The notes under the pieces are model-generated. The model saw only the letters and a list, made by a program, of their open reading frames with translations, was not told the origin of the DNA and did not search any database. The position numbers were made by a program, and so were the translations under genes. From contig PIVQ01000160.1 of NCBI GenBank assembly GCA_003354055.1, positions 1 to 11,860 of the forward strand: a DNA stretch of 11,860 nucleotides. The letters run 5' to 3'. The stretch is from Desulfobacteraceae bacterium (GTDB lineage: Bacteria; Desulfobacterota; Desulfobacteria; Desulfobacterales; Desulfobacteraceae). Positions 1,518 to 9,905 of this stretch are shown here, one piece after another; the first letter of the stretch is position 1, and the number at the start of each line of letters is the position of its first letter.

Positions 1518-2222
1518 TCATGCTCCACTGTCATATTCATGGATAAAGGAGGCGCAGATACTGGCGTGGCTTCTGGCAAGTTGCCGGGCCAGTTCAACAT
1601 CCTGTCCCACAATGGCTTCAAGAATGGGTTGGTGCCGGTCCAGGGCCCCTTTCCAGTCCGAGATGCTCTGGGCATACTGCACTAGGAAAAAGCGGATCTG
1701 GCGGTGGAGCGCCTGGTACATGGAATGGAAAAATTCGTTTCCGGTAATTTCCGACAGGGCCAGGTGAAAGGCATAATCCCGGTCCGCAAAGTTTTCAGAG
1801 CTGGTGATAGCCGTGTCATCGTATTTGAGGAGCTTTTCAAGGCGGCGGATATCTTCGGCAGTCCTTCGGGCTGCCACTGTGGCGGCGATTTCCGACTCGA
1901 TGAGGTTCCGGGCCTCTACCAGGTCCTGCATACGGTCCCGGTTCTGTTGGGGGAACATGGGGATGAGCACATTCTCAAGGGCAGGAATGCTGACCTTGTC
2001 ATTTACAAAGGCGCCTTTGCCGTGCTGGACCCGGATTATTCCCACGGCCGCCAGGCGGGCCAGTGCATCCCTCAGGGTCAGGCGGCTGACGGAATATTCC
2101 TTGAGCATCTCCTGTTCCGAGGGCAGTTTTTGCCCAGGGCCGAACTCACAGCTCATGATCCGTTCCTTGAGGTTTTCCACGAGGGCTTCGGTGGCGGTTA
2201 CCTTTTGCAGCTTAATATTCAT
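1518..2222 (-). CDS. GntR-family transcriptional regulator, FadR/FCD subfamily (GlcC-like context)
   Basis: A 234-residue regulator. Residues about 8-73 form a GntR winged helix-turn-helix, with FGPGQKLPSEQEML, then SVSRLTLRDALARL as recognition region, then GIIRVQHGKGAFV as wing. Residues about 97-225 form an FCD ligand domain with candidate metal ligands D149 and H153 (DYAFH), H197 (DRHQPI) and H219 (RSHAS). Family members (GlcC, LldR, PdhR, FadR) bind carboxylates or acyl-CoA and usually repress until the effector binds. The start at 2222 is supported by AGGAG five bases upstream. A dyad operator at 2251-2265 overlaps its predicted promoter, and near-identical dyads lie at the dctP and malate synthase promoters, so it probably represses itself and both operons. 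The effector may be glycolate or another 2-hydroxy acid, inferred only from the neighbours. Confidence 0.92.
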   Translation of the reverse strand: MNIKLQKVTATEALVENLKERIMSCEFGPGQKLPSEQEMLKEYSVSRLTLRDALARLAAVGIIRVQHGKGAFVNDKVSIPALENVLIPMFPQQNRDRMQDLVEARNLIESEIAATVAARRTAEDIRRLEKLLKYDDTAITSSENFADRDYAFHLALSEITGNEFFHSMYQALHRQIRFFLVQYAQSISDWKGALDRHQPILEAIVGQDVELARQLARSHASICASFIHEYDSGA

Positions 2223-2250
2223 TAGGGCTCCTGATGGGTAAAGCGTATCT

Positions 2251-2265
2251 GCTCATCTGATGAAT
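2251..2265. promoter_or_regulatory. Predicted operator O1 at the regulator promoter
   Basis: GCTCATCTGATGAAT matches the perfect dyad found at 7142-7156 at 13 of 15 positions and keeps the core CTCATCTGATGA. It lies 28 bp upstream of the regulator start codon and touches the predicted minus-strand -10. This is the classic position for autorepression by a GntR-family protein. GCGTA (2243-2247) and TACGC (2268-2272) form an outer inverted pair around it. Confidence 0.6.
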
Positions 2266-2292
2266 TGTACGCATATCGTATTTATCCATTAA
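2264..2292 (-). promoter_or_regulatory. Predicted promoter of the regulator-dgkA operon
   Basis: Read on the minus strand, TTAATG (2292-2287) and TACAAT (2269-2264) are separated by 17 bp. The -10 matches the sigma-70 consensus at 5 of 6 positions, while the -35 is weak. Operator O1 starts within the -10. No clear terminator separates the upstream oxidoreductase gene, so read-through from the TRAP operon into the regulator is also possible. Confidence 0.4.
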
Positions 2293-7230: not shown

Positions 7231-7263
7231 GAGGATTTGAACACTACAGAAAGTGAGGATGCC

Positions 7264-9435
7264 ATGACAGACAGAATTCAAAGCGGCGGACTTCAGATTG
7301 CCCCGGCCCTTTTCGACCTGATCACCAACGAAGCTATTCCTGGAACCGGAATTGATTCGGAACGTTTCTGGGAAGGTCTGGCGCGCATCGTTGATGAACT
7401 CGGCCCTGAAAACAGGCGGCTCATGAAAAAACGGGACAACATTCAGGCAAAGATCGACGCATGGCATCATGACAACCCGGCCCTTCCATTTGATGCCGAG
7501 GCCTATAAGTCCTTTTTATACGAGATCGGCTACCTTTTGCCTGAAGGAGAAGATTTTAACATCACAGTTGCCAATGTGGACGATGCCGTTGCAGGAATTG
7601 CAGGTCCCCAGCTGGTGGTGCCGGTCAGTAATGCAAGATTTGCCCTCAATGCCGCCAATGCGAGGTGGGGCAGCCTCTACGATGCCTTCTACGGGACCGA
7701 CGTCATTCCGGAATTCGACGGATGCGAAAAGTCCGGTGAATTTAATTTCACCCGCGCAGCACAGGTCATCCGGAAAACCAACGCTTTTCTGGACAAGGCC
7801 GTCCCCCTGGTACAGGGCAGCCACGGTGATGTTACGGCCTACGCATTAGCCGATGAAAACGGCAAAAAAACACTCACTGCCACACTGGGAAACGGCAGCA
7901 CCACGGGACTGGAAATGCCGGAAAAATTTGTCGGCTACCAGTCTGAGACCGGCCTCACTTCCGTCCTGATGAAAAACAACAACCTCCATATCGAGCTTCA
8001 GATCGACAGGTCCCATCCCATCGGCAGTACCAACCCCTCAGGTGTCAAGGATGTGATCCTAGAATCGGCCGTCACCACTATTCAGGACTGCGAGGATTCG
8101 GTTGCCGCAGTGGATGCCGAAGACAAGGCCAACATATACCGCAACTGGCTGGGGCTGATGAAGGGGGACCTTGCAGAAACCTTTGAAAAGGGCGGTAAAA
8201 AAATGACCCGGCGGCTGAATCCGGACCGCAGCTTCCTGGACACCGCGGGCAATGAATTCGTTCTTCAGGGCCGAAGCCTGATGCTGATCCGGAACGTGGG
8301 CCATCTCATGACCATTGATGCGGTCCTGGACAAAAACGGGGACGAGATTCCCGAAGGTATGCTGGACGCCATGGTCACTGTGCTTTGCGCCATTCACGAC
8401 TTTAAACGGGACACGGAGCGCAACTCATATGAAAAGAGCATCTATATCGTCAAGCCAAAAATGCACGGCCCTGAAGAGGCCGCCTTCACCGACACCCTGT
8501 TCGCCAGGGTGGAGGATGCCCTGAATTTGCCCCGCAATACCGTCAAGGTCGGCGTGATGGATGAGGAGCGTCGGACCACAGTGAACCTAAAGGAATGTAT
8601 CCGGAAGGTAAAAGACCGCCTTGTCTTCATCAACACAGGCTTTCTGGACCGTACGGGTGACGAGATCCATACCAGTATGGAAGCAGGACCGGTCCTGCCC
8701 AAGGAACAGATCAAAACTCAGCCCTGGCTGTCCACCTACGAAGACTGGAACGTGGATATCGGTCTGTCATGCGGCCTTCAGAATAAAGCCCAGATCGGCA
8801 AGGGCATGTGGCCAAAACCCGACGAGTTGGCGGAAATGTTGAATATAAAACACAATCATCCGGCAGCCGGTGCAAACTGCGCCTGGGTGCCGTCCCCCAC
8901 AGCCGCCACTCTCCATGCCATGCATTACCACAAGATTTTGGTTTCCTCACGTCAGGAGGAACTACGTTCCCGCACCCGAGCTAACCTGGACGCTATTCTG
9001 ACACCGCCCCTGATGCTGGAAAACACGCTTACGCCCGAAGACATCCAGGCGGAACTGGACAACAACGCCCAGGGCATCCTCGGCTATGTGGTCCGCTGGA
9101 TCGACCAGGGTGTGGGCTGCTCAAAGGTGCCTGACATCAACAATGTGGGCCTGATGGAAGACCGGGCCACCCTCCGGATTTCAAGCCAGCACATTGCCAA
9201 CTGGCTGCGTCACGGCATCTGCACTGAGACCCAGGTGCTGGAGACTTTGAAAAGAATGGCCGGGGTGGTGGACGGCCAAAATGCAGCTGATCCCGGCTAT
9301 ACGGCCATGGCACCAAAATTTGACGGTGTGGCGTTCAAGGCGGCCTGTGACCTTGTTTTCAAGGGCCGGGAACAGCCCAACGGATATACGGAACCACTGC
9401 TGCACGCCCGTCGCCGCGAGGCTAAAAGCGTATAA
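7264..9435 (+). CDS. glcB: Malate synthase G
   Basis: The 723-residue protein has exactly the length of E. coli malate synthase G and condenses glyoxylate with acetyl-CoA to malate in the cytoplasm. Active-site regions are intact. R343 in LIRNVGHLMT, the acidic pair D433-E434 in GVMDEERRTT and D462 in FLDRTGDE match the glyoxylate/Mg2+ residues (E. coli R338, E427, D455). D633 in MEDRATLRISSQHIANWLRH is the expected catalytic base (E. coli D631). C619 in GVGCSKVPD corresponds to the redox-sensitive cysteine near E. coli C617. I prefer the ATG at 7264, with GAGG five bases upstream. A TTG at 7237 with its own AAGAGGA would add nine residues, and the two ribosome sites make a longer form possible. 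It is 41 bp ahead of the glcG-like gene. No isocitrate lyase is nearby, so glyoxylate probably comes from an imported compound. Confidence 0.97.
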   Translation: MTDRIQSGGLQIAPALFDLITNEAIPGTGIDSERFWEGLARIVDELGPENRRLMKKRDNIQAKIDAWHHDNPALPFDAEAYKSFLYEIGYLLPEGEDFNITVANVDDAVAGIAGPQLVVPVSNARFALNAANARWGSLYDAFYGTDVIPEFDGCEKSGEFNFTRAAQVIRKTNAFLDKAVPLVQGSHGDVTAYALADENGKKTLTATLGNGSTTGLEMPEKFVGYQSETGLTSVLMKNNNLHIELQIDRSHPIGSTNPSGVKDVILESAVTTIQDCEDSVAAVDAEDKANIYRNWLGLMKGDLAETFEKGGKKMTRRLNPDRSFLDTAGNEFVLQGRSLMLIRNVGHLMTIDAVLDKNGDEIPEGMLDAMVTVLCAIHDFKRDTERNSYEKSIYIVKPKMHGPEEAAFTDTLFARVEDALNLPRNTVKVGVMDEERRTTVNLKECIRKVKDRLVFINTGFLDRTGDEIHTSMEAGPVLPKEQIKTQPWLSTYEDWNVDIGLSCGLQNKAQIGKGMWPKPDELAEMLNIKHNHPAAGANCAWVPSPTAATLHAMHYHKILVSSRQEELRSRTRANLDAILTPPLMLENTLTPEDIQAELDNNAQGILGYVVRWIDQGVGCSKVPDINNVGLMEDRATLRISSQHIANWLRHGICTETQVLETLKRMAGVVDGQNAADPGYTAMAPKFDGVAFKAACDLVFKGREQPNGYTEPLLHARRREAKSV

Positions 9436-9476
9436 GAAATCAACCTGATAGATCAAAATTTATTCAAGGAGGAAAC

Positions 9477-9905
9477 ATGCAGACCATAAAACGACTCAGC
9501 CACAGCGAAGCCCTTATCCTGATCGATGGTGCCCGTGCAAAAGCCAAAGAGATCGGTGTTCCCATGTGTATTGCCATTGTAGATGAATCCGGCAACATGA
9601 TCGCCTTTGAACGCATGGACGGCGGAAAAGTTACCAGCATCACCATTGCCCAGGACAAGGCCTTTACCGCAGCTGCTGCCAAAAAAGCCACCCATGACTA
9701 CAATGCCGCCTGTGTACCCGGCAGCCTGGCCTTTGGGATTCATACCATGCTCGGCGGACGCCTTTCCGTTGTGGGCGGCGGCCTGCCCGTCATCGTGGAC
9801 GGCGAGGTCGTCGGCGGTATCGGCCTGAGTTCCGGTACCCCCCAGCAGGATATGGACTGTGCACAGGCAGGAATCGATCATTTCATGGAGAACATGCCCA
9901 AATAA
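9477..9905 (+). CDS. glcG: GlcG/HbpS-family protein
   Basis: A 142-residue soluble protein of the GlcG/HbpS family (PF03928). Conserved segments are the strand-turn VDESGNMIAFERMDG (35-49), the helix with AQDKAFTAAAAKKAT (58-72), LGGRLSVVGGGLPV (92-105) and VVGGIGLSSGTPQQD (111-125). Some relatives bind haem (HbpS) or act in corrinoid and diol pathways, but the role of GlcG in glycolate operons remains unknown. The start has a very strong ribosome site, AAGGAGG, four to five bases before ATG. It is the second gene of the malate synthase operon, as glcG and glcB are neighbours in E. coli. There is no signal peptide, so the protein is cytoplasmic. Confidence 0.9.
   Translation: MQTIKRLSHSEALILIDGARAKAKEIGVPMCIAIVDESGNMIAFERMDGGKVTSITIAQDKAFTAAAAKKATHDYNAACVPGSLAFGIHTMLGGRLSVVGGGLPVIVDGEVVGGIGLSSGTPQQDMDCAQAGIDHFMENMPK

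What the first reader, a model, noticed from the sequence alone, without database searches (positions are those of the whole stretch)
1518..9905. A remodelled glycolate (glc) locus with a TRAP importer and an unrelated FAD enzyme
The sequence shows a GntR/FCD regulator, a FAD oxidoreductase, dctPQM, malate synthase G and GlcG, with shared operators tying them together. E. coli glc contains GlcC (same regulator family), GlcDEF, GlcG, GlcB and the permease GlcA. Three of the five functions are conserved here, and the dehydrogenase and permease appear to be replaced by different families. With no isocitrate lyase nearby, malate synthase needs another glyoxylate source, which glycolate or a similar acid would supply.
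Basis: partly seen in the sequence, partly recalled or inferred. Interest (0 to 1): 0.75.

Follow-up and report, generated by a model that had tools for sequence, protein, structure and literature searches.

The report
Glyoxylate-feeding TRAP–FAD–malate synthase gene block
A bacterium from a family of sulfate reducers carries a probably acquired gene block that seems to import a small organic acid, oxidise it to glyoxylate with an uncharacterised flavin enzyme, and turn the glyoxylate into malate; it resembles the E. coli glycolate genes in logic but does not look descended from them.

Summary
The host is placed in Desulfobacteraceae (EamA 79%, DgkA 78%, same order). In 86 genomes of that family malate synthase G was found in 0 and isocitrate lyase in 0, so glcB is probably acquired.

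'Remodelled glc locus' is partly right. Among equivalog models only malate synthase G is passed; regulator and small protein fail GlcC and PRK09732. The conserved core is TRAP + PF12831 FAD enzyme, adjacent in a spirochaete without glcB. The operator also precedes FAD in L001 (1 mismatch) and gntR homologues in L063 (exact) and L004 (2 mismatches). glcB was near none of 80 FAD loci. On 13 plasmid loci examined, glcB has a heme-binding-protein (HbpS-like) gene within 5 kb in 7 and a D-amino-acid-dehydrogenase gene directly upstream in 5.

Most likely: TRAP import, FAD oxidation to glyoxylate, malate synthase, under GntR control. Substrate unproven; two clade-specific DctP arginines hint at a second anionic group. 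New variant of a known kind.

The parts
1518..2222 (-). gntR: GntR/FCD transcription factor, presumed repressor of the block
   Evidence: PF00392+PF07729; operator 29 nt upstream of its start; 68% identical homologue in L063 behind the exact operator
2251..2265 (+). operator copy upstream of gntR (2 mismatches to ACTCATCTGATGAGT)
2289..3650 (-). FAD-dependent oxidoreductase, PF12831, 453 aa; proposed glyoxylate-forming dehydrogenase
3666..3723 (.). left arm of a perfect 58-nt inverted repeat, just upstream of the FAD start
   Evidence: longest in 30 mononucleotide shuffles 20 nt
3810..5087 (-). dctM: TRAP large permease
   Evidence: PF06808, TIGR00786 above cut-off; 84% identical in L002
5140..5601 (-). 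dctQ: TRAP small permease
   Evidence: PF04290; 55% identical in L002
5674..6666 (-). dctP: TRAP solute-binding protein
   Evidence: PF03480; 28 proteins at E<=1e-60, query included; R88 and R147 conserved in the clade
6886..6900 (+). operator copy upstream of dctP (1 mismatch)
   Evidence: this stretch matches the region upstream of FAD in L001 (42 nt, 95%)
7142..7156 (+). operator copy upstream of glcB (exact), directly after TTGACA
7173..7230 (.). right arm of the 58-nt inverted repeat, upstream of glcB
7264..9435 (+). glcB: malate synthase G
   Evidence: TIGR01345 1066.8 bits (cut-off 989) and PRK02999 1195.2 (cut-off 565); 1019.8 bits to 5oas
9477..9905 (+). HbpS/GlcG-like (DUF336) protein
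   Evidence: PF03928 133 bits; nearest solved: 2a2l, EfgA 6bws, 5cx7, NahX 9jth

Best explanation
A probably acquired, GntR-controlled catabolic regulon in a Desulfobacteraceae. (1) DctPQM imports a small organic acid, perhaps with two anionic groups. (2) The PF12831 flavoenzyme, acting as a dehydrogenase in this presumed anaerobe, oxidises it and releases glyoxylate. (3) Malate synthase G condenses glyoxylate with acetyl-CoA to malate. (4) The HbpS/GlcG-like protein supports this, possibly by sensing or buffering the aldehyde. (5) GntR binds ACTCATCTGATGAGT upstream of gntR, dctP and glcB and is released by the substrate or a product. Shown by sequence: gene identities, operator sharing, TRAP-FAD linkage, no MSG or ICL found in the host family. 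Inferred: steps 1, 2, 4, and that regulation is repression.
For: MSG passes its equivalog cut-offs, and the motifs holding the catalytic residues (recalled) are present. MSG 0 of 86 and ICL 0 of 86 genomes of the host family; E. coli rang as a control in both. Operators upstream of gntR, dctP and glcB. TRAP and FAD adjacent in a spirochaete in the same order (66/55/84/69%); of 24 FAD and 14 DctP clusters compared, three pairs share the exact longest-contig length. Operator upstream of FAD in L001 and of gntR homologues in L063 and L004. On plasmids, of 13 glcB loci examined out of 132 records, 5 have a D-amino-acid-dehydrogenase gene directly upstream and 7 a heme-binding-protein (HbpS-like) gene within 5 kb.
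Against: 0 of 80 FAD loci have glcB or this glcG nearby (many contigs are short), so the glyoxylate link rests on this genome plus analogy. The closest FAD relative, L001 (85%), showed no DctP at E<=1e-85 (5 of 19 candidates scored, no positive control) and no MSG (no positive control; with controls). The plasmid cases are few independent events: L115/L122 (Aminobacter) and L117/L118 (Mesorhizobium) are like pairs. Close relatives of the small protein (66-71%) also sit without glcB in reach among sugar genes (L111) or by malonyl-CoA genes (L113). In L002 the ThDP enzyme scores best to glyoxylate carboligase but below cut-off (611 against 791) and keeps the glutamate (RHEEAA) that true carboligase lacks (recalled). 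The class V aminotransferase beside FAD in L001 and L063 is below every equivalog cut-off. Solved relatives of the FAD enzyme match only its N-terminal nucleotide-binding part.
Confidence: 0.55

Rival explanations
1. A true glycolate (or 2-hydroxy acid) system: TRAP imports glycolate and the FAD enzyme replaces GlcDEF as glycolate dehydrogenase.
For: Functional analogy with E. coli glc; flavoenzymes of this broad fold can oxidise 2-hydroxy acids (recalled: L-2-hydroxyglutarate oxidase, malate:quinone oxidoreductase). L002 has a LarA-type racemase and an Fe-alcohol dehydrogenase downstream of FAD, both below their cut-offs.
Against: The DctP clade has R88 (24 of 25) and R147 (25 of 25), with no Arg at either place in the 5 solved relatives aligned; weak, as the pocket is not modelled. 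GlcD-like enzymes are already common in the host family (85 of 86 genomes, 0 of 86 above the glcD cut-off).
Confidence: 0.22
2. Two systems under one regulator: the FAD enzyme acts on a substrate that does not give glyoxylate, and glyoxylate for MSG comes from elsewhere, e.g. glycine or purine breakdown.
For: The wider FAD family sits with Opp-type binding proteins, BCCT, MttB and aminotransferases, so substrates differ; glcB near 0 of 80 FAD loci.
Against: Shared operators; the stretch upstream of dctP matches that upstream of FAD in L001.
Confidence: 0.18
3. Ordinary glyoxylate shunt: isocitrate lyase elsewhere in the genome feeds MSG, and the TRAP/FAD genes are unrelated uptake.
For: The host genome is not held, so ICL there is not excluded.
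Against: ICL 0 of 86 and MSG 0 of 86 in the host family; glcB shares the operator with dctP and gntR.
Confidence: 0.05

Closest known systems
E. coli glc locus (glcC-glcDEFGBA; gene order recalled)
   Same: GntR/FCD-type regulator, malate synthase G and a DUF336 protein together, with a flavin route to glyoxylate proposed
   Different: No GlcD/E/F or GlcA among the 10 proteins scanned; regulator and small protein fail the GlcC and PRK09732 cut-offs; TRAP importer and PF12831 enzyme instead
Plasmid cassettes: D-amino acid dehydrogenase - malate synthase G - heme-binding protein (L115, L117, L118, L122)
   Same: Flavin dehydrogenase, MSG (61-62% identical) and a gene annotated heme-binding protein side by side
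   Different: The L117 flavin enzyme is a D-amino acid dehydrogenase (PRK12409), not PF12831; the adjacent small protein is distant (36% in L118; not detected by BLAST at 1e-6 in L115, L117, L122), while close relatives (68-69%) lie 1.1-13.6 kb from glcB in L121, L120 and L112; no TRAP seen
Spirochaetia TRAP-FAD cluster L002
   Same: dctP 66%, dctQ 55%, dctM 84%, FAD 69%, same gene order
   Different: No glcB or glcG found, and no operator at up to 3 mismatches; ThDP enzyme, IclR-type regulator, LarA and Fe-ADH as neighbours
Desulfobacteraceae clusters L001 and L063
   Same: FAD 85% (L001) or GntR 68% (L063), same operator
   Different: Class V aminotransferase after FAD, no malate synthase nearby; L063 has an Opp-type binding protein
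TRAP solute-binding proteins 4nn3 (orotate-bound per PMC11668362, passages), 4o8m, IseP
   Same: Fold, and by alignment the arginines R150 and R170 and N210
   Different: R88 and R147, absent from the 5 solved relatives aligned

Membership tests
E. coli-type glc locus | GlcDEF glycolate dehydrogenase | tested here: not met
   Not among the 10 window proteins scanned; the FAD enzyme is PF12831. Rest of the host genome not held.
E. coli-type glc locus | GlcC regulator (equivalog PRK09990) | tested here: not met
   83.8 bits against a cut-off of 301; best is the NanR subfamily, 124.3 against 260.
E. coli-type glc locus | E. coli GlcG (equivalog PRK09732; that this model is GlcG is recalled) | tested here: not met
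   61.7 bits against 246; family PF03928 met.
E. coli-type glc locus | Malate synthase G | tested here: met
   TIGR01345 1066.8 bits, cut-off 989.15.
E. coli-type glc locus | GlcA permease | tested here: not met
   None of the 10 proteins scanned is a lactate/glycolate permease; TRAP genes instead. Rest of genome not held.
Malate synthase G | Catalytic Arg, Glu, two Asp (recalled as R338, E427, D455, D631 in E. coli) | tested here: met
   Motifs GRSLMLIRN, MDEERRT, GFLDRTGDE, GLMEDRA present, aligned with 5oas. Activity not tested.
TRAP transporter (DctPQM) | Three components together | tested here: met
   PF03480, PF04290, PF06808.
GntR/FCD (FadR-type) regulator | GntR HTH + FCD domain | tested here: met
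   PF00392 and PF07729.
GntR/FCD (FadR-type) regulator | Binding to its operator and repression | not testable with these tools
   Palindromic sites present; binding needs an experiment.
PF12831 FAD oxidoreductase | Full-length profile match | tested here: met
   309.8 bits, profile 1-416/416.
Glyoxylate-forming flavin dehydrogenase | Release of glyoxylate from substrate | not testable with these tools
   Needs an assay.
Glyoxylate carboligase (neighbour in L002) | Equivalog score, and no ThDP-activating Glu (recalled) | tested here: not met
   611.2 against 791 bits; RHEEAA keeps Glu.

The most novel reading that the evidence does not exclude
The PF12831 enzyme is a new type of glyoxylate-forming dehydrogenase that cleaves N- or O-carboxymethyl acids (such as iminodiacetate, strombine or diglycolate) brought in by a dedicated TRAP importer, and glcB with an HbpS-like gene is a portable glyoxylate-disposal cassette attached independently to unrelated flavin enzymes (GlcDEF, D-amino-acid-dehydrogenase-like, PF12831).
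Probability: 0.2. Interest if true: 0.62.

Novelty: new variant of a known kind. Interest (0 to 1): 0.45.

Why it matters
It points to an uncharacterised flavoenzyme clade with a defined importer, regulator and probable product sink, so its substrate can be found by a few direct assays. If right, it gives some members of a sulfate-reducing family a way to use glyoxylate-yielding acids without a glyoxylate shunt, and it gives the small DUF336/GlcG proteins a recurring setting beside enzymes that may make glyoxylate.
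Full report
What is in the window. Searches give: EamA (96-1013, -), DgkA (1134-1514, -), GntR/FCD regulator (1518-2222, -), PF12831 FAD oxidoreductase (2289-3650, -), dctM, dctQ, dctP (3810-6666, -), malate synthase G (7264-9435, +), HbpS/GlcG-like protein (9477-9905, +) and a DUF3604 gene cut by the window end. gntR and dgkA are 3 nt apart, so the minus-strand genes may read through into dgkA.

Shared operator. ACTCATCTGATGAGT has 7 strand matches at up to 3 mismatches, at 4 places; 0.18 are expected and 0 of 200 shuffles reach 7. 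The sites lie upstream of gntR (2251), dctP (6886) and glcB (7142, exact, directly after TTGACA); the fourth (5607) is weak. In 80 FAD loci (1,279,346 bases) there are 7 sites at up to 2 mismatches. Three are where a regulon predicts: 82-96 nt upstream of FAD in L001 (1 mismatch), and upstream of the gntR homologues in L063 (exact; 68% identical regulator) and L004 (2 mismatches; 36%). The other 4 are scattered and look like background. The stretch upstream of L001 FAD is 95% identical over 42 nt to that upstream of the window's dctP; the stretch upstream of L063 gntR is 85% identical over 53 nt to that upstream of the window's glcB. So regulator, operator and FAD enzyme recur together, and glcB is under the same operator here. 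A site directly after a -35-like box suggests repression; that is inference, and the promoter scan does not call a promoter there.

Host and origin. EamA is 79% identical in G001 (Desulfobacteraceae MAG, through L001) and 76% in Desulfospira joergensenii (G004), against 30% in the spirochaete; G003 had no match at E<=1e-15. In L110, DgkA (78%) and EamA lie in the same order, with a radA-like gene (named by eye) upstream; in L109 a radA-like gene precedes EamA and DgkA gave no hit. In the window that upstream place is taken by the block. Malate synthase G was found in 0 and isocitrate lyase in 0 of 86 genomes of this family; controls rang in 2 and 5 of 14 named genomes, E. coli in both. Completeness of these genomes is not told. 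Of the 120 GlcB hits listed, 14 name an organism, all Pseudomonadota by my knowledge of taxonomy; the closest, 78% identical, is unnamed. The small protein is 66-71% identical to proteins on 9 plasmid records of Shinella, Phyllobacterium, Rhizobium, Sinorhizobium and Ensifer. Acquisition of glcB-glcG is likely, not proven.

The conserved core. Besides the query, 24 of the 120 FAD hits listed are 69% identical or more, then there is a gap to 64% and below. DctP has 28 hits at E<=1e-60, query included. In L002 (Spirochaetia) dctP, dctQ, dctM and FAD are adjacent in this order at 66, 55, 84 and 69% identity. Three pairs of FAD and DctP clusters have the same longest-contig length (73,535; 5,462,537; 144,283), which suggests three linked cases, one probably L002's own cluster. 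Neither glcB nor glcG occurs near FAD in any of 80 loci (many contigs are short, so counts are lower bounds). The wider family (mostly 53-61% identity) is found with an Opp-type binding protein in 13 of 80, a second PF12831 protein in 12, a class V aminotransferase in 9 (two partial), MttB-like in 7, BCCT in 6 and a ThDP enzyme in 4 (three of these only 26-27% alike), so substrates vary.

Glyoxylate link. Malate synthase G passes both equivalog cut-offs, and the motifs recalled as catalytic are present. Of 13 plasmid loci around glcB that I opened (of 132 records, BLAST in 108), a heme-binding-protein (HbpS-like) gene lies within about 5 kb of glcB in 7 (L114, L115, L117, L118, L120, L121, L122; in L115, L117 and L122 by annotation only) and a D-amino-acid-dehydrogenase gene directly upstream in 5 (L115, L117, L118, L119, L122). 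One (L125) has no annotation in the stretch. L115/L122 and L117/L118 are like pairs from one genus each, so independent events are fewer. The L117 dehydrogenase passes PRK12409 (718 bits, cut-off 494). So a flavin dehydrogenase, malate synthase G and an HbpS-like gene recur together outside the glc operon. Against this, close relatives of the small protein also sit by malonyl-CoA genes (L112, L113, L120) or among sugar genes (L111). Two leads failed: the L002 ThDP enzyme is not a true carboligase by score or by the glutamate test, and the aminotransferases are below all cut-offs.

Substrate. In alignments with five solved TRAP proteins the window DctP has R150, R170 and N210. PMC11668362 (passages) describes two arginines and an Asn that bind the carboxylate or sulfonate in this family, and a Lys in 4NN3 in place of one Arg; in my alignment that Lys stands opposite R150, which fits. 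In the 25 clade members aligned, R147 is in 25 and R88 in 24; by my reading none of the five solved relatives has Arg at either place. I infer a substrate with a second negative group; that R88 and R147 line the pocket is not shown. N- or O-carboxymethyl acids would release glyoxylate on oxidation; this is chemistry recalled, and I know of no enzyme of this family that does it.

The small protein. Nearest solved relatives are 2a2l, EfgA (6bws), 5cx7 and NahX. EfgA is a formaldehyde sensor; its paper names GlcG of E. coli among DUF336 proteins linked to known pathways and calls the domain's role there elusive (PMC8153426, abstract and passages). The three EfgA residues named there (K57, S114, D121) align with K61, S118 and D125 here (offset of 20 worked out by me), but the paper calls them largely conserved in DUF336 proteins, so this does not discriminate. 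Sensing of glyoxylate is a hypothesis.

Repeats. A perfect 58-nt inverted repeat (3666-3723 and 7173-7230) lies just upstream of FAD and of glcB; 30 mononucleotide shuffles gave at most 20 nt. The left copy is part of a palindromic stretch (3655-3804 folds at z -3.7), and a second palindrome precedes dctP (6667-6790, z -5.3). No convincing match in 104 fetched loci or in plasmids (left element). They may be traces of how the block was assembled.

Verdict. A real, coherent, probably acquired catabolic regulon; like glc in logic, not evidently by descent. Best reading 0.55; interest 0.45.

Noticed in passing
window 3666-3723 and 7173-7230: Perfect 58-nt inverted repeat upstream of FAD and glcB, enclosing dctPQM; could be a duplicated half of a mobile palindrome or mark an invertible segment.
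   Followed up: partly
window 3667-3810 and 6686-6786: Two palindromic, MITE-like elements directly upstream of FAD and dctP (folds of 3655-3804 and 6667-6790: z -3.7 and -5.3).
   Followed up: partly
window 1515-1517: Only 3 nt between the gntR stop and the dgkA start, so the block may drive dgkA-eamA.
   Followed up: no
L063 6319-12497: Related Desulfobacteraceae cluster: gntR (68% identical, exact operator), Opp-type binding protein, two PF12831 enzymes, class V aminotransferase.
   Followed up: partly
L004, L005, L007, L063, L080: Module of two unlike PF12831 enzymes plus a class V aminotransferase in Chloroflexi and Desulfobacteraceae records, with an Opp-type binding protein found in 3 of these 5; function unknown.
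   Followed up: no
L115, L117, L118, L122: D-amino acid dehydrogenase - malate synthase G - heme-binding protein cassette on Mesorhizobium and Aminobacter plasmids.
   Followed up: partly
L121 3436-3864: Relative of the window's GlcG-like protein (68% identical) annotated as DNA polymerase III subunit delta', 1.1 kb from glcB; likely mis-annotation.
   Followed up: no
L002 14474-18691: GntP permease, altronate/galactarate-dehydratase-like protein and a second LarA-like racemase close to the TRAP-FAD cluster.
   Followed up: no
window 10176-11858: DUF3604 gene (cut by the window end) with no match at E<=1e-40 in 86 Desulfobacteraceae genomes (no positive control).
   Followed up: no
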